Below the pieces are notes generated by a model. That model made no database searches, was not told the origin of the DNA, and worked only from the letters and a program-made list of their open reading frames with translations. Shown in pieces: positions 9,309 through 57,885 of a stretch of DNA of 64,000 bases. A program made the translations under genes and the position numbers. The DNA is from Pseudolabrys sp. (lineage in GTDB: Bacteria > Pseudomonadota > Alphaproteobacteria > Rhizobiales > Xanthobacteraceae): NCBI GenBank assembly GCA_017849615.1, contig JAFIGS010000014.1:83740-147739 (forward strand), written 5' to 3'. Positions within the stretch are counted from its first letter, which is position 1. Every line of letters starts with the position of its first letter.

Positions 9309-9592
9309 CGCTATTCACATGGCGAACGAAGATCCTTGACGTTCGGTAATTTTCAAACAAGCACCCCTCATCCCGGCGCGACCGTCGACGCTCTTCCCGC
9401 TTTGTCAGGCAGTTGACCAGCTTCTTGCTTAGAGCCCGGTCTCGCCATGACCAAACCGAAGCGGGTAGCTCCAGTTCTCAGCCCCCTGCGCATTTGATTG
9501 GAGCGGTGGCTATGGGTCCCGGGCCTCGCTATCGCTCGCCCGGGACGACGGCAAGGGTCGGTTCCCAATTTGTTCTTTGCCATCCGCGCGCC
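9309..9592. other. Intergenic stretch with one GC-rich hairpin
   Basis: No gene is seen between the small protein and the helicase. The one clear structure is GTCCCGGGC (9516-9524) against GCCCGGGAC (9538-9546), a 9-bp perfect hairpin with the same GTCCCGG core as the dispersed repeats elsewhere in the window. GC content rises through the stretch, marking the return to ordinary chromosomal composition. Confidence 0.4.
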
Positions 9593-10729
9593 ATGCATTA
9601 TGCAATGCCGATGAAATTCACGCCCCATCAGGATGACGCGCTCAAAGCCGTCTCAAGCTGGCTCAAGGCCAAGCCCGGCACCGGTTCGACGCCGCAGATT
9701 TTCCGCCTGTTCGGCTTTGCCGGCACCGGCAAGACCACGCTCGCCACCCACCTCGCCGAGGCGGTGGACGGCGAGGTGAAGTTCGCCGCCTTCACCGGCA
9801 AGGCGGCCTCCGTGATGCGCGGCAAAGGCTGCCGCGGCGCCACCACCATCCATTCGCTGATCTACCGCGCGCGCGAGAGCGGCGAGGAAATCCCCAGCTT
9901 CGATCTCTGGGAGGAGGCGCCGGCCTCGAAGGCGTCGCTCATCATCATCGACGAATGCTCGATGGTCGATGGCGAGCTCGGCAAGGACCTGCTCTCCTTC
10001 GGCGTGCCGCTCTTGGTGCTGGGCGATCCGGCGCAATTGCCGCCGATCACCGCCGGCGCCAATGGCGGCGGCTTCTTCACCGAGCACGAGCCCGACGTGA
10101 TGCTCACCGAGGTGCATCGCCAGGCGCAGGACAATCCGATCATCCGCCTGTCGATGGACATCCGCGCCGGCGAGTATCTCGAGCCCGGCCGCTATGGCGA
10201 GACCGAGGTCGTCATCAAGAGCGAGCTCGATCCGCAGCGCGTGCTCGATGCCGACCAGGTGCTGGTCGGCCGCAACAACACGCGGCGCGCCTATAACCAG
10301 CGCATGCGCGAGCGCCGCGGCTTCAAGGACCCGATGCCGGAAGCCGGCGACAAGCTGGTTTGCCTGCGCAACAACCGCAAGAAGGCTTTGTTCAACGGCG
10401 GCCTGTGGAGCGTCAAGGAACGCGGCGGCCGCAAGACCGGCATCATGACGTTACGCCTGATGCCCGACGACGAAACCGCGACGCGCGGCGTCAAGGTGTC
10501 GGTGCGGCCGGAATGTTTCACCGGCGGCATCGAGCAGATGGACTGGCAGCAGCGCAAACCCTACGACGAGTTCGACTACGGCTATGTGCTCACCGTGCAC
10601 AAGGCGCAAGGCTCGCAGTGGGACGACGTCGTTTTGTTCGACGAGAGCTTCGCGTTTCAGGAATCGCGCCAGCGCTGGCTCTATACCGGCGTCACCCGCG
10701 CCGCCAAGCGGCTGACGGTGGTGATGTAG
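9593..10729 (+). CDS. ATP-dependent DNA helicase, Dda/RecD-like (superfamily 1B)
   Basis: A protein of up to 378 residues. Walker A is FAGTGKTTLATH (near residue 40), Walker B IIIDECSMVD (near 119), motif III LLVLGDPAQLPP, and the C-terminal UvrD_C_2-like motif VLTVHKAQGSQWDDVV near residue 335 followed by WLYTGVTRAAKRL. These are the superfamily 1B helicase motifs seen in phage Dda and RecD. It probably unwinds DNA 5' to 3' in repair or replication restart. Three in-frame ATGs (9593, 9605, 9611) are possible starts and none has a clear Shine-Dalgarno; the frame stays open further upstream but those residues come from hairpin DNA. Confidence 0.85.
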   Translation: MHYAMPMKFTPHQDDALKAVSSWLKAKPGTGSTPQIFRLFGFAGTGKTTLATHLAEAVDGEVKFAAFTGKAASVMRGKGCRGATTIHSLIYRARESGEEIPSFDLWEEAPASKASLIIIDECSMVDGELGKDLLSFGVPLLVLGDPAQLPPITAGANGGGFFTEHEPDVMLTEVHRQAQDNPIIRLSMDIRAGEYLEPGRYGETEVVIKSELDPQRVLDADQVLVGRNNTRRAYNQRMRERRGFKDPMPEAGDKLVCLRNNRKKALFNGGLWSVKERGGRKTGIMTLRLMPDDETATRGVKVSVRPECFTGGIEQMDWQQRKPYDEFDYGYVLTVHKAQGSQWDDVVLFDESFAFQESRQRWLYTGVTRAAKRLTVVM

Positions 10730-43554: not shown

Positions 43555-43582
43555 AAGGGCCGCCCCTTCCGGGACGGCCCTT
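43555..43582. terminator. Two-way terminator between flavoprotein and small peptide genes
   Basis: AAGGGCCGCCCC (43555-43566) pairs with GGGACGGCCCTT (43571-43582) with one mismatch and a TTCC loop. On the minus strand it follows the small peptide stop by 30 bases and ends in a run starting TTC; it is equally placed two bases after the flavoprotein stop on the plus strand. Confidence 0.7.
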
Positions 43583-43611
43583 CCATTGTCGAACCGCAAT
43601 CCGCGGGACCG

Positions 43612-43689
43612 CTAGCTGACGCGGAACCCCACCGAGGCGAAATTCCAGGTCGCGGTTGCCGACGTCTGCGGCGATAGACAATGAGACAC
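43612..43689 (-). CDS. 25-codon peptide gene with a perfect Shine-Dalgarno
   Basis: A GTG start at 43689 opens a frame of 25 residues, beginning MSHCLSPQTS and ending ASVGFRVS. Seven bases ahead of it is AGAAAGGAGGTGATCC, complementary to the whole 16S rRNA 3' tail; I see no other gene in the window with such an extended ribosome site. A hairpin terminator follows the stop. The peptide has one cysteine, one tryptophan and a Ser/Thr-rich middle. I do not recognise a family. It lies 98 bases downstream of the kinase gene on the same strand. Options are a small regulatory or membrane-associated peptide, a peptide precursor for modification, or a leader. Translation is inferred only from signals. 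Confidence 0.5.
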   Translation of the reverse strand: MSHCLSPQTSATATWNFASVGFRVS

Positions 43690-43787
43690 TGGATCACCTC
43701 CTTTCTGATGTTGACGATGGACGTAACGTAATCGGTCCACGCCGGTTTGGAAGGGGCTTCGAGCGCCAAAATGAGGCGCCGACCGCG

Positions 43788-54254: not shown

Positions 54255-56240
54255 ATGACCATCGAGAAGCAGAAGCGCGATAAACCCTGGATTTTCCGCA
54301 CCTATGCGGGCCATTCGACGGCCGCGGATTCCAACGCGCTGTATCGGAAGAACCTCGCCAAGGGGCAGACCGGTCTGTCGGTCGCCTTCGATCTGCCGAC
54401 GCAAACCGGTTACGACAGCGACCATGTCCTGTCGCGCGGCGAAGTCGGCAAGGTCGGCGTGCCGGTCAGCCATCTCGGCGACATGCGCGCGCTGTTCGAC
54501 CAGATCCCGCTCGGCTCGATGAACACCTCGATGACCATCAACGCCACCGCGGCGTGGCTGATGGCGCTCTACATCGCCGTGGCCGACGAGACCGGCGCGC
54601 CGCGCACGGCGCTGACCGGCACCATCCAGAACGACATCATCAAGGAGTACCTGTCGCGCGGCACTTACGTGTTTCCGCCGAAGCCGTCGCTTCGCCTGAT
54701 CAAGGACGTCGCGATCTTCACCACTTCGGAACTGCCGAAGTGGAATCCGATGAATATCTGCTCCTATCACTTGCAGGAAGCCGGCGCGACGCCGGTGCAG
54801 GAACTGGCTTACGCGCTGGCCACCGCCATCGCCGTGCTCGACACCGTGAAGAACTCCGGGGAAGTCGATCAGGCCAAGTTCGGCGAGGTGGTCGGCCGCA
54901 TTTCGTTCTTCGTCAATGCCGGCCTGCGCTTCGTCACCGAAGTCTGCAAGATGCGCGCCTTCAGCGAACTCTGGGACGAGATCACGCGCGAGCGCTATGG
55001 CGTCACCGATCCCAAGCAGCGCCTGTTCCGCTATGGCGTGCAGGTCAACTCGCTGGGCCTCACCGAACCGCAGCCGGAAAACAACGTCGCCCGCATTCTC
55101 ATCGAGATGCTGGCCGTCACGCTGTCGAAAAACGCACGCGCGCGCGCGGTGCAATTGCCGGCCTGGAACGAGGCGCTCGGCCTGCCGCGGCCGTGGGACC
55201 AGCAGTGGTCGCTGCGCATGCAGCAGATCCTCGCCTACGAAACCGACCTCCTCGAATACGGCGACATCTTCGACGGTTCTTCCGAGATCACCCGCAAGGT
55301 GGAGGAACTGAAAGCCGAAGCCCGCGAAGAACTCAAGCGCATCGAGGACATGGGCGGCGCCGTGGCCGCGGTCGAGACCGGCTACATGAAGCAGCGTCTC
55401 GTCGAGTCGAACACCGCGCGTCTCGAAGCCATCGAGCGCGGCGATCAGGTGGTCGTCGGCGTCAACAAGTATCTCGAGACCGAGCCGTCGCCCCTCACCG
55501 GCGGTATCGATTCCATCATGACCGTGCCCGAGGAAGCCGAGCACAACCAGATCGAACGGCTCAATGCCTGGCGCGCGCAGCGCGACAACAAGGCCGTCGC
55601 CGAGGCGCTGGCCGCGCTCAAGCGCGCCGCGACCGAAGGCAGCAACATCATGCCGCCATCGATCCAGTGCGCCAAGGCCGGCGTCACCACCGGCGAATGG
55701 GGCTGGACCTTGCGCGAAGCCTTCGGCGAATACCGCGCGCCGACCGGCGTCGGCAACGCCATGCGCAACGACGTCGAGGGGCTCGACGATATCCGCGCCG
55801 ATGTCGATCGCGTGTCGTCGAAGCTCGGCCGCCGCCTCACATTCCTGGTCGGCAAGCCGGGGCTCGACGGCCACTCCAACGGCGCCGAGCAGATCGCCGT
55901 GCGCGCCCGCGATGCCGGCATGCAGGTCGTCTATGAAGGCATCCGCCTGACGCCGGAAGAAATCGTCGAAGCCGCGCGCGACAACAAGGCCCACGTCATC
56001 GGCCTGTCGATCCTCTCGGGCAGCCATCTGCCGCTGGTCAAGGATGTGGTCGGCCGCATGAGGGCCGCCGGGCTCGATGTACCGGTGGTCGCCGGCGGCA
56101 TCATCCCGCCGGAAGACGCCGCCGAACTGGAGAAGGCCGGCGTCGCCGCCGTCTATACGCCCAAGGACTTCGAGCTCAACCGCATCATGGGCGATCTCGT
56201 CCGCATCGTCGAGCGCAAGAACGATCTGACGAACGCCTAG
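54255..56240 (+). CDS. ecm: Ethylmalonyl-CoA mutase
   Basis: A 661-residue coenzyme B12 enzyme (also called MeaA) converting ethylmalonyl-CoA to methylsuccinyl-CoA. The mutase barrel spans about 1-515 (FDLPTQTGYDSDHVLSRGEV near 47, STMTINATAAWLMALYIA-like tract near 90); the C-terminal cobalamin domain has GKPGLDGHSNGAEQIA with the D-x-H-x-x-G motif, then LSILSGSHL and VVAGGIIPPEDA. It acts between Ccr and Mcd. The start is ATG at 54255; a GTG three codons earlier is possible. The TAG stop overlaps the TAG of the convergent selenoprotein gene by three bases. Confidence 0.95.
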   Translation: MTIEKQKRDKPWIFRTYAGHSTAADSNALYRKNLAKGQTGLSVAFDLPTQTGYDSDHVLSRGEVGKVGVPVSHLGDMRALFDQIPLGSMNTSMTINATAAWLMALYIAVADETGAPRTALTGTIQNDIIKEYLSRGTYVFPPKPSLRLIKDVAIFTTSELPKWNPMNICSYHLQEAGATPVQELAYALATAIAVLDTVKNSGEVDQAKFGEVVGRISFFVNAGLRFVTEVCKMRAFSELWDEITRERYGVTDPKQRLFRYGVQVNSLGLTEPQPENNVARILIEMLAVTLSKNARARAVQLPAWNEALGLPRPWDQQWSLRMQQILAYETDLLEYGDIFDGSSEITRKVEELKAEAREELKRIEDMGGAVAAVETGYMKQRLVESNTARLEAIERGDQVVVGVNKYLETEPSPLTGGIDSIMTVPEEAEHNQIERLNAWRAQRDNKAVAEALAALKRAATEGSNIMPPSIQCAKAGVTTGEWGWTLREAFGEYRAPTGVGNAMRNDVEGLDDIRADVDRVSSKLGRRLTFLVGKPGLDGHSNGAEQIAVRARDAGMQVVYEGIRLTPEEIVEAARDNKAHVIGLSILSGSHLPLVKDVVGRMRAAGLDVPVVAGGIIPPEDAAELEKAGVAAVYTPKDFELNRIMGDLVRIVERKNDLTNA

Positions 56241-56761
56241 GCGCGCAGCAACAGTTCCCGCGCCTGGGCGATGGTGTCGCGCGCATATTGCTCCATGGTC
56301 TCGTCGGATGCGCTGCTGATCGGGTGGCCGATGACGCAGAACCTGTAGTCCGGCATGCCGAGCACGCGGCACATCAGCTCCGCCGCGCTGACGAAACGCG
56401 ACGTCATGACGCCGATGGCCGGAACGCCGACTTTCTCAACCGCGATACTGTCGTGCAGACTGCACGATGAACAGCTTCCTCAATCGCCGACGCCGGTCAC
56501 CGCCGCGTGCCATTGCCGCGCCTCATCGATGATCGCGGCTTCGGCCGGAGCGCTGTAGTTCTTCTTCTGGCGCCACACCACGTCGGCAACGCCGAGCTCG
56601 TCGCGCAGCAGCCGCTCGACCCTTGTAAAGTAGGGCCTCGTGCCTTCCTTGCCATTGGTGATGATGCCGACGGTCTTGCCCTCGAGCGTCAACGGACGCG
56701 GCGCCGGGCGAATGCCGGCCGCCTTGAGCTCATGAGTCGGATCGAAAATATGCAAGGCCAT
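56237..56761 (-). CDS. UGSC-family selenoprotein (UGA at 56480-56482 read as selenocysteine)
   Basis: Read with the TGA at codon 94 as selenocysteine, the gene gives a continuous 174-residue protein ending in TAG at 56237. The order is MALHIFDPTHELK at the N-terminus, GKTVGIITNGKEGTRPYF near 27, a helix with IIDEARQWHAAVTGVGD, then U-G-S-C at 94-97, SSCSLHDSIAVEKVGVPAIG and a C-terminal CVIGHPISSASDET. This is the UGSC (seleno)protein family, in which U or C precedes GSC in a thioredoxin-like redox motif. GGAAGGGAAG before the ATG supports the start. A SECIS-like hairpin lies just after the UGA. The partner gene ends 38 bases upstream on the same strand. Function is unknown; a selenol-based redox role is inferred. 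Confidence 0.88.
56448..56474 (-). promoter_or_regulatory. Bacterial SECIS-like hairpin after the Sec codon
   Basis: On the minus strand, 12 bases after the UGA, TCGTGCA and TGCACGA form a perfect 7-bp stem around GTC, with CTG/CAG pairing outside a bulge. The apex TGCAGTCTGCA is close to the E. coli fdhF SECIS apex TGCAGGTCTGCA, and the apical loop lies 19 bases from the UGA against 18 in fdhF. This is the position and shape SelB requires. Confidence 0.75.
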
Positions 56762-56799
56762 GTTTCTTCCCTTCCTGCTTCTTATCGTTGACTTCGTCT

Positions 56800-57885
56800 T
56801 CAGCCCTTCGGCGGCTCGCAATCGACGCAGGCGCCGATGGCGGCCGTGACCGCGCGGGTCTTGCTGCCCATCCACGGCGGAATGACGGCGCCGAAACCGC
56901 CCGCCGGACCCCCGGCGGCAATCACCAGCAGGTCATCCGGCGAACCAAGTGCGGCGTGAATTTTCTCGGGGCGGTCACGCACGATCGCGCCCTTGCCGAC
57001 ATTGGCCCACTCCTTGCGCGTCACGCGCGCGCGCTCGTGAACGTAGTCGGCGACATCCTGTTTGCTCCAGCCCGCTGCTTCGATGATGTCACGCAACTGC
57101 TTGGGAACGACAATGGCGTAGTTGCCGCCGTAGATCGAATAGTTCAACTGGTTGGCGCGCATCTCCGCAGCGAAGGTTTCGAGAATTTCTTTCGGATCGT
57201 TGGTCCACTCGTTCATGATCTGGCGCGGCGACATGGCCGCCATCACCGTGACGGCGGACAGGCCGTCGGGAATGCCGCGCATCGCGGCCAGCGATTGCCA
57301 CGACGTGCCCTCCTCGTCTTCGGCCAGGCAGTACGAGAACTTGCCGGGATGGCCGAAGGTCGAGCGGTCGATGCCGCCGGGCCGCACATCCATCAGATTG
57401 ATCAGGCCGAGGCGAACCGCGCGCCCGATCACTGCTGTGGCGCGATCGCTGTTGCCGAGCGCGTTGAAGGTTCCGGAAGCGCCAATCTCAAGACGGATCG
57501 GCCCGTTGATGACCACGAACACCGCGCAGCCGCCGGTGCTCGATGATATGCCATGGAGCAGAAACTCGTCTTTCAGCATCGCCTGCCAGGCTGTGGCGAC
57601 GACCGGGAAATGCATCGGCAGACAGCCGGCCATCACGGCGTTGATCGCCAGCTTCTCTGCGGTAATGGGCTGGGCGCGTACCGGCTCGATGCCGATCAAC
57701 TGGTCGGGCGGCATCAGCGCCCAGTCGAGACATTCGGCGACGGCTTTTTCGGTTGGCGGGACCACCGGCAAGCCGTCGGTCCAGCCGTTGCTGTGGAACA
57801 TCTCCTGCGCCGCGGCGAAGTCGGCGACCTCGTAAACCTTCGAGCTCAGCGTCGGTTTCGCATCGGCGTGGAGGACGTTCGACAT
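56800..57885 (-). CDS. Conserved partner of the UGSC selenoprotein, unknown function
   Basis: A 361-residue soluble protein with no signal peptide. The most conserved-looking tract is FHSNGWTDGLPVVPPTEKAV near the N-terminus (about 30-50), then QPITAEKLAINAVMAGC, SSTGGCAVFVVINGP, and near the C-terminus AAGGPAGGFGAVIPPW and IGACVDCEPPKG, giving cysteines as CVDC at the tail. I recall the DGLPVVPPT motif from uncharacterised proteins encoded beside UGSC genes; this is memory, not a search. The ATG at 57885 follows GGGAGCGCCACCTC. The stop is 38 bases before the selenoprotein ATG, so they form an operon. The C-terminal CxxC may exchange electrons with the selenol. Confidence 0.65.
   Translation of the reverse strand: MSNVLHADAKPTLSSKVYEVADFAAAQEMFHSNGWTDGLPVVPPTEKAVAECLDWALMPPDQLIGIEPVRAQPITAEKLAINAVMAGCLPMHFPVVATAWQAMLKDEFLLHGISSSTGGCAVFVVINGPIRLEIGASGTFNALGNSDRATAVIGRAVRLGLINLMDVRPGGIDRSTFGHPGKFSYCLAEDEEGTSWQSLAAMRGIPDGLSAVTVMAAMSPRQIMNEWTNDPKEILETFAAEMRANQLNYSIYGGNYAIVVPKQLRDIIEAAGWSKQDVADYVHERARVTRKEWANVGKGAIVRDRPEKIHAALGSPDDLLVIAAGGPAGGFGAVIPPWMGSKTRAVTAAIGACVDCEPPKG

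What the first reader, a model, noticed from the sequence alone, without database searches (positions are those of the whole stretch)
56237..56761. UGSC selenoprotein gene hidden as two broken frames
Reading the in-frame TGA at 56480-56482 as selenocysteine yields one uninterrupted 174-residue protein with the diagnostic U-G-S-C motif after TGVGD. The sequence continues in the same frame for a further 80 codons with convincing family likeness (HDSIAVEKVGVPAIG, a conserved end) up to a TAG. A standard caller would end the gene at the UGA and lose the redox centre and the whole second half. Selenoproteins are uncommon in this bacterial group beyond formate dehydrogenase.
Basis: partly seen in the sequence, partly recalled or inferred. 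Interest (0 to 1): 0.88.

Follow-up and report, generated by a model that had tools for sequence, protein, structure and literature searches.

The report
Selenium protein read through a stop
A bacterial gene that looks cut in two by a stop codon is almost certainly one whole selenium-containing protein of an already named but unexplained family, and it comes with a second, unnamed protein that was found in just the same genomes.

Summary
On the minus strand, 56761 to 56237, one frame encodes 174 residues if TGA 56480-56482 is read as selenocysteine. The product matches the UGSC family across the TGA (PF24696, E 4.8e-49). The genome has tRNA-Sec, selA, selB and selD. Three congeners keep the TGA. 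Codons after it form a SECIS-type hairpin: the loop serine codon is AGT in 142 of 142 Sec genes with this motif, against 7.5% of serine codons in partner genes. So it is a real selenoprotein, of a family in print since at least 2008.

New here: the adjacent 361-aa gene (56800-57885), with no Pfam or NCBIfam family, looks like an obligate partner. In 385 genomes of the class, UGSC and partner were found in the same 38, adjacent or fused in 48 of 49 loci. Many partners carry a C-terminal Cys pair or an N-terminal CxxC extension; two of four annotated loci have trxB beside the pair. I propose a dithiol/thioredoxin-fed, two-subunit selenol reductase resembling selenoprotein B of glycine/proline reductase (UxxCxxC). 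That likeness is suggestive only. Substrate unknown.

The parts
56237..56761 (-). UGSC-family selenoprotein gene, 174 aa including Sec94; stop TAG 56237-56239
   Evidence: translation with TGA=U; PF24696 E 4.8e-49; AlphaFold2 model mean pLDDT 91.2
56480..56482 (-). in-frame UGA read as selenocysteine (Sec94)
   Evidence: same codon TGA in 3 congeners; in the 49 loci found by protein profile 41 have TGA and 8 TGC at this codon
56462..56482 (-). U-G-S-C-S-S-C redox motif (UxxCxxC), Sec94-Cys97-Cys100; Sec sits at the start of helix 95-110 after strand 86-92 in the model
56451..56467 (-). SECIS-type hairpin, nt 16-32 counted from the U of the UGA: stem UCGUGCA/UGCACGA, loop G23-U24-C25
   Evidence: fold; loop Ser codon AGT in 104 of 104, then 142 of 142 Sec genes with the SLHD motif; pair 18-30 covaries
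56766..56776 (-). ribosome-binding-site-like AGGAAGGGAAG before the UGSC start codon
   Evidence: sequence read
56800..57885 (-). partner gene (361 aa from ATG 57885; scanned as 364 aa from 57894), upstream in the same direction, 38 nt before UGSC; C-terminal tail ...GACVDCEPPKG with CxxC
   Evidence: no Pfam, NCBIfam or PHROGs family at E<=0.001, nor Pfam or NCBIfam at E<=1 bar one Pfam hit of 0.14; same 38 of 385 genomes as UGSC; adjacent or fused in 48 of 49 loci

Best explanation
The gene is a genuine selenoprotein gene: SelB and Sec-tRNA read the UGA with the help of a hairpin 16-32 nt downstream, giving a 174-residue UGSC-family protein. It works as one half of a two-protein reductase with the gene upstream. 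Sec94 sits at the start of a helix in an alpha/beta (Rossmann-like) domain. Its selenolate attacks or reduces the substrate held by the partner, closes to a Se-S bond with Cys97 (or Cys100), and is re-reduced by a dithiol. In this locus that dithiol is the CVDC at the partner's C-terminus; in others it is an N-terminal CxxC (thioredoxin-like) extension or free thioredoxin. Shown by comparison: Sec decoding, family, partner linkage. Inferred: complex, electron path, catalytic order. Unknown: substrate. My odds: selenoprotein 0.96; obligate functional pair 0.9; thioredoxin/dithiol-fed reductase 0.55 (lowered from 0.6 on re-check, because trx genes are rare near the pair in the wider set); working like selenoprotein B of glycine/proline reductase on a small organic substrate 0.4-0.45.
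For: Family match across the TGA. tRNA-Sec 75.7 bits with anticodon TCA, plus selB, selA and selD. TGA conserved in three congeners. AGT at the loop serine in 104 of 104 versus 7.5% of 1634 Ser codons in the partner genes; Leu codon NTG in 104 of 104; A18 only with U30 in 10 of 10; none of 8 Cys homologues has NGT there. With 39 further loci: AGT 142 of 142, NTG 142 of 142, A18 with U30 11 of 11. selA in 32 of 36 genomes with Sec-type UGSC versus 11 of 37 congeneric genomes without UGSC (Fisher p 2.5e-7). Partner and UGSC in the same 38 of 385 genomes, adjacent or fused in 48 of 49 loci. Dithiol in the partner: of 40 loci that have a partner and are not UGSC-first fusions, 23 have a C-terminal Cys pair and 12 an N-terminal CxxC extension without tail. 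trxB next to UGSC in Roseovarius and trxB-trxA-partner-UGSC in Arthrobacter. UxxCxxC is also the motif given for GrdB (PMC13188914 passages); profile comparison aligns Sec with Sec.
Against: The hairpin's folding energy is no better than shuffles (z -0.56, 34-51% of 500 synonymous shuffles fold as well, 4 sequences). Within the genus only 2 of 4 genomes with Sec-type UGSC have selA, against 11 of 37 without UGSC. One 99%-complete genome (G056) has a Sec-type UGSC but neither selA nor a strong tRNA-Sec; the three other such genomes are only 72-85% complete. Of 118 pattern-found loci with a Sec UGSC, 35 of 105 adjacent partners show no tail or N-terminal dithiol by the script's rule, and 13 loci show no partner, 9 of them with under 1.4 kb of upstream DNA held. 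In 120 stretches (L070-L189) a TrxB query matched 3 and a TrxA query none at E<=1e-8; two of the four annotated regions opened have no trx gene listed. The GrdB likeness weakens with a larger alignment (25% probability) and with cysteines masked (46% and 5%). No solved structure resembles the partner clearly. No substrate, expression or protein data.
Confidence: 0.68

Rival explanations
1. The TGA is a sequencing error or a nonsense mutation in a dying gene.
For: A standard caller sees broken frames. The congener G041 has a frameshifted partner gene, so decay of the pair can happen.
Against: Same TGA in three congeners and in 41 of 49 profile-found loci; dN/dS 0.16-0.19 after the TGA; a loop codon choice that SECIS explains and codon usage does not.
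Confidence: 0.02
2. The UGA is a working stop and the 93-residue first half is the product.
For: No protein data here exclude some termination at the UGA. The Sec machinery might be kept for formate dehydrogenase alone (one search finds an Fdh-like gene with a TGA; 11 of 37 congeners without UGSC have selA).
Against: The second half holds Cys97 and Cys100 and stays under purifying selection; synonymous choice at the hairpin; Cys homologues read through.
Confidence: 0.03
3. UGSC plus partner is a peroxidase or disulfide oxidoreductase for stress defence, not a metabolic reductase; the family has been guessed to be thioredoxin-like (PMC2398784).
For: UxxC motif; thioredoxin genes or CxxC extensions nearby in part of the loci.
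Against: The confident model is a Rossmann-like sandwich, and the structural neighbours listed are not thioredoxins, which does not exclude it. A large partner found in the same genomes, several paralogues per genome and catabolic-type neighbours fit substrate-specific enzymes better.
Confidence: 0.2
4. The pair reductively cleaves a C-N, C-S or C-O bond of small organic acids, as glycine/D-proline reductase does, with the partner in the role of the substrate-binding subunit.
For: Shared UxxCxxC; hhalign 86.8% with Sec on Sec, reversed control 0.4%; a PrdB-like Sec gene directly downstream of UGSC in G440; CoA-transferase, enoyl-CoA hydratase, TctC/TRAP genes among the neighbours.
Against: Likeness falls to 25% with the larger alignment; no PF07355 match for 20 UGSC proteins; of five partner-family proteins scanned none matched a substrate-binding family; neighbours differ from locus to locus.
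Confidence: 0.4

Closest known systems
UGSC family (seleno)protein, PF24696 / NF041046
   Same: Near whole-length match across the Sec codon, U-G-S-C motif, Sec or Cys at the same place
   Different: Nothing essential; this gene is an ordinary member that scores 0.1 bit below the NCBIfam cut-off. The passages I read assign the family no function.
'Unknown_1' domain fused to UGSC (Global Ocean Sampling, PMC2398784)
   Same: A conserved domain fused to UGSC; very likely the partner family described here, since the partner is fused behind UGSC in 8 of 49 loci
   Different: [quoted passage not shown] here it is mostly a separate neighbouring gene found in the same genomes as UGSC. Its Figure S1 was not seen, so the identity is inferred.
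Selenoprotein B of glycine/D-proline reductase (GrdB/PrdB, PF07355)
   Same: UxxCxxC motif; in a profile alignment Sec, UxxC and the G-[VI]-P strand line up
   Different: No PF07355 match for UGSC proteins; partner without detectable likeness to a Pfam substrate-binding family
selC nested inside selB of Alphaproteobacteria (Mukai 2021, PMC8124441; abstract and section 2.1 seen)
   Same: In this genome tRNA-Sec lies inside the 699-aa selB frame, whose stop overlaps the next ATG
   Different: None seen; a further instance

Membership tests
UGSC family (PF24696 / NF041046) | profile match over the curated cut-off, Pfam | tested here: met
   167.2 bits versus 25, residues 5-171
UGSC family (PF24696 / NF041046) | profile match over the curated cut-off, NCBIfam equivalog | tested here: inconclusive
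   124.9 bits versus 125, E 2.4e-36, with U scored as C
UGSC family (PF24696 / NF041046) | U/C-G-S-C motif at the conserved site | tested here: met
   U94-G-S-C97; columns 94 and 97 are invariant (Sec/Cys and Cys) in the alignment of 20 sequences
Bacterial selenoprotein | complete Sec machinery in the genome | tested here: met
   tRNA-Sec, selB, selA, selD over cut-off
Bacterial selenoprotein | SECIS hairpin just after the UGA | tested here: met
   comparative codon and pairing evidence; energy alone not significant
Bacterial selenoprotein | Se shown in the protein | not testable with these tools
   needs 75Se label or mass spectrometry
GRDB (selenoprotein B of glycine/proline reductase) | PF07355 profile match | tested here: not met
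   none of 20 UGSC members at E<=5; no PF07355 match at E<=0.001 in the own genome
GRDB (selenoprotein B of glycine/proline reductase) | UxxCxxC motif | tested here: met
   UGSCSSC; motif of GrdB as given in PMC13188914 (passage)
GRDB (selenoprotein B of glycine/proline reductase) | remote homology by profile-profile comparison | tested here: inconclusive
   86.8% with 20 sequences, 25.3% with 126; masked 46.5% and 4.8%; reversed 0.4% and 0.1%; best of 20 column shuffles 13.1%, next 0.8%
GRDB (selenoprotein B of glycine/proline reductase) | pyruvoyl-bearing partner subunit (GrdE/PrdA type) | tested here: inconclusive
   no such Pfam match for 5 partner-family proteins at E<=1; processing cannot be seen
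Thioredoxin-fold oxidoreductase | thioredoxin fold | tested here: inconclusive
   model has five strand-helix repeats; lists are led by other folds, which does not exclude it

The most novel reading that the evidence does not exclude
UGSC plus its unnamed partner is a widespread, so far unrecognised two-component selenoenzyme in free-living bacteria: a thioredoxin- or dithiol-fed reductase that works like selenoprotein B of glycine/proline reductase. The partner binds the substrate and in many lineages also brings its own dithiol arm (C-terminal CxxC tail or N-terminal CxxC extension) to recycle the Sec. Paralogues (at least 8 UGSC copies in one genome) would serve different substrates.
Probability: 0.4. 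Interest if true: 0.7.

Novelty: new member of a known kind. Interest (0 to 1): 0.45.

Why it matters
The gene itself is a further member of a named selenoprotein family, but gene callers that stop at UGA would lose its redox centre. The pair matters more. UGSC proteins are among the commonest selenoproteins in aquatic metagenomes (PMC2398784, passages), and the passages I read assign them no function. A partner found in the same genomes, a dithiol in many of those partners and thioredoxin genes beside some pairs turn an orphan protein into a two-subunit enzyme that can be expressed, purified and assayed with a defined electron donor.

Tried and rejected

Neighbourhood enrichment: in 41 stretches, clustering of neighbour genes gave no family in more than 8 stretches (genes were called simply as longest open frames, so some are wrong). 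The ten cluster representatives scanned included a sensor kinase, an ABC transporter, a molybdopterin dehydrogenase, an LysR regulator, TctC, an enoyl-CoA hydratase and SelB. So no substrate could be read from context. In this genome the convergent neighbour is a mutase of the methylmalonyl-CoA type; a very similar frame lies in the same place in G014, on the strand opposite to UGSC.

Folding energy as SECIS evidence: not significant. I rely on codon choice and pairing instead. The pattern fixes the amino acids but leaves the tested codon positions free. One locus (L154) gave no motif and was left out there. Sequences are related (134 distinct 60-mers among 142), so the Fisher p of 1e-4 is only a guide. 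Five Sec genes outside the UGSCxxC motif type (L031, L035, L037, L038, L039) have other codons at nt 22-24 and, if a hairpin, another register. In the 11 other UGSCxxC Sec genes pair 22-26 fails in 8 and pair 18-30 in 2; pair 16-32 fails in 32 of 104.

The complementarity of tail and N-terminal extension is a tendency, not a rule (the script also counts L187 as neither, although CLDC stands a little further in). The CxxC in the N-terminal extensions of L046 and L048, which also have a tail, was not checked to be a thioredoxin-like domain; of the extensions only that of L033 was scanned. labels three loci (L041, L042, L067) partner-first fusions; one search shows a TGA stop between the two genes, so these are adjacent genes, and only the 8 UGSC-first fusions stand. 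Genome searches score a limited number of first-look candidates per genome (at most 8 and 5), so copy numbers are lower bounds and absences are not absolute.

The window also has a CC2171-family sRNA, which I did not connect to the gene. PHROGs gave nothing.
Full report
What is there. The sequence at 56237-56761, read on the minus strand, is one open frame of 174 residues interrupted only by TGA at 56480-56482. A mechanical list splits it: the first half runs to the TGA, and the second half has no frame of 60 residues or more in this reading frame. The read-through product matches Pfam UGSC over residues 5-171 with E 4.8e-49 and NCBIfam NF041046 with E 2.4e-36, 0.1 bit below the curated cut-off. 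It is the only UGSC match in the genome.

Is the UGA read as selenocysteine? Four lines agree. First, machinery: a tRNA-Sec (75.7 bits; ARAGORN calls it tRNA-SeC, anticodon TCA), selB (421.9 bits), selA (588.8) and selD (419.1), all on contig C35 of a 99.99%-complete genome. The same contig carries an Fdh-like gene with one in-frame TGA, so the machinery alone would not prove the case. Second, conservation: G014, G016 and G041 of the same genus have 75-83% identical homologues with TGA at the same codon. Two further congeners, G008 and G017, have more distant copies with TGC. dN/dS after the TGA is 0.16-0.19, against 0.20-0.29 before it.

Third, the hairpin: nt 16-32 after the UGA form UCGUGCA-GUC-UGCACGA. 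Among 104 Sec genes with the motif UG(S/A)C(S/T)(S/T)CSLHD, 25 found by profile and 79 by pattern, the Ser codon that places G-U in the loop is AGT in 104 of 104, although AGT is 7.5% of 1634 Ser codons in the partner genes of these loci. The Leu codon ends in G in 104 of 104, against 58%. A at position 18 occurs only with U at position 30, 10 of 10. With all 119 pattern loci the figures are AGT 142 of 142, NTG 142 of 142 and A18 with U30 11 of 11, over 134 distinct 60-mers. In 11 further UGSCxxC Sec genes the codon is TGT, AGT or GGT, always with G-U. Five Sec genes of other motif type (four UGSC-first fusions with USTC, and L039) have GTC or GTG there. In 8 Cys homologues it is never NGT. 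By recall, G-U at nt 23-24 is also where the E. coli fdhF element has its SelB contact.

Fourth, co-occurrence: selA was matched in 32 of 36 genomes with a Sec-type UGSC (one of them, G091, only by a partial match under the cut-off), in 2 of 7 whose UGSC copies show no in-frame TGA, and in 11 of 37 congeneric genomes without UGSC. The 36-versus-37 comparison has Fisher p 2.5e-7, but the two groups differ in kinship; within the genus it is 2 of 4 against 11 of 37.

Results against it: folding energy is no better than shuffles. Four genomes with a Sec-type UGSC lack a selA match, and their best tRNA-Sec matches are 42-48 bits, a range that tRNA-Ser also reaches (in the own genome a 50-bit hit is tRNA-Ser). 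Three of them are 72-85% complete, but G056 is 99% complete and remains an exception.

The partner. Directly upstream, same strand, 38 nt away, lies a gene of 361 codons from ATG 57885 with no Pfam, NCBIfam or PHROGs family. In 385 genomes of the class, UGSC was found in 38 and the partner in 38, and they are the same 38 (sets compared). In 49 loci fetched by UGSC alone, the partner lies in the fetched stretch (1.5-kb flanks at most) in 48, and in 8 of these it is fused behind UGSC. The one exception, L057, has a partner elsewhere in the genome (G164:C161). Of the 119 loci found by a DNA pattern, 118 gave a Sec UGSC match and 105 of these have the partner within 1.5 kb on the same strand. Of the other 13, nine have under 1.4 kb of upstream DNA held, and four (L135, L177, L178, L180) show none. 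In Roseovarius, Arthrobacter, Natrinema and Halorientalis plasmids a RefSeq 'hypothetical protein' next to UGSC is this partner (profile match). The 2008 paper that named a fused 'Unknown_1' domain probably saw the same protein (PMC2398784, passages); its figure was not available. Papers holding the word UGSC were searched. Passages of the 8 that also hold 'selenoprotein' name no partner beyond Unknown_1 and no function beyond a presumed redox role.

A dithiol in the partner. Leaving out the 8 UGSC-first fusions and the one locus without partner, 40 of the 49 loci remain. Of these, 23 partners end in a Cys pair such as ACVDCE or TCTDGSC. Another 12 have an N-terminal extension with CxxC and no tail (nine, and L047, L052 and L053 when read in longer stretches L074, L077 and L078). 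HMMER sees weak thioredoxin-like character in the one such extension scanned, L033 (TraF E 1.2e-4, Thioredoxin_2 0.028, both under their cut-offs). Five show neither (L027, L030, L044, L049, L055). In the pattern-found set, 70 of 105 partners have a tail by the script's rule and 35 have neither; those seen are largely a Reyranella-type paralogue and a betaproteobacterial type. In Roseovarius a trxB follows UGSC, and in Arthrobacter trxB-trxA-partner-UGSC stand in a row; the Natrinema and Halorientalis regions list no trx gene. In 120 stretches a TrxB query matched three and a TrxA query none, so trx neighbours are the exception. Sec genes lie near some pairs: selB 71 bases from the pair in L097, and selA 5-6 kb from UGSC in G190, G222 and G156 (places).

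Mechanism. The AlphaFold2 model of UGSC (mean pLDDT 91.2) is an alpha/beta sandwich in which Sec94 follows strand 86-92 and caps helix 95-110, a usual place for a reactive selenol. The motif is UxxCxxC, the motif that a 2026 review gives for GrdB (PMC13188914, passages). A profile comparison with 14 GRDB-like proteins of the same class puts Sec on Sec, UxxC on UxxC and GVPA on GIPT, at 86.8% probability (reversed control 0.4%, partner profile 0.3%). It drops to 25.3% with 126 UGSC sequences and to 46.5% and 4.8% with cysteines masked, while the best of 20 column-shuffled controls reached 13.1% and the next 0.8%. PF07355 itself does not match any of 20 UGSC proteins. I therefore do not file UGSC under GRDB; I only say that it may work like it. 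The proposed cycle is: substrate bound by the partner, attack or reduction by Sec94, Se-S bond with Cys97/Cys100, re-reduction by the partner's CxxC or thioredoxin.

Standing. The gene is a new member of a known kind. What I have not found in print in the searches named is the exact co-occurrence of the partner, its dithiol modules and the synonymous signature of the hairpin.

Noticed in passing
L009 1294-3393 (selB) and about 1346-1437 (tRNA-Sec), minus strand; G000:C35: The tRNA-Sec gene lies wholly inside the selB frame, whose TGA stop overlaps the ATG of the next frame, as described for other Alphaproteobacteria (PMC8124441).
   Followed up: yes
G000:C35:157569-160460: A formate-dehydrogenase-like gene with one in-frame TGA near the sel genes, a probable second selenoprotein.
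   Followed up: no
L074 about 9496-9954 and L248 (G440:C14:37504-37917): A PrdB/GRDB-like Sec gene (PVUPFC) follows UGSC directly, so two selenoprotein genes stand in tandem after the partner.
   Followed up: partly
class sample, PF07355: 43 of 385 genomes have short GRDB-like genes; 26 of these 43 are among the 38 with UGSC.
   Followed up: no
G056 (L035): A Sec-type UGSC in a 99%-complete genome without a selA match or a clear tRNA-Sec.
   Followed up: partly
L027 2057-3107: The partner gene of congener G041 is frameshifted near its end, an assembly error or early decay.
   Followed up: no
L081 9744-14076: The UGSC copy without an adjacent partner sits 182 bases from a 1222-residue protein that I read by eye as hydantoinase/oxoprolinase-like; not scanned against Pfam.
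   Followed up: partly
L232 4863-7525: In the haloarchaeon Halorientalis litorea a UGSC gene annotated in full is flanked by two partner copies.
   Followed up: no
window 43556-43713, minus strand: CC2171-family sRNA (RF01867, 98.7 bits).
   Followed up: no
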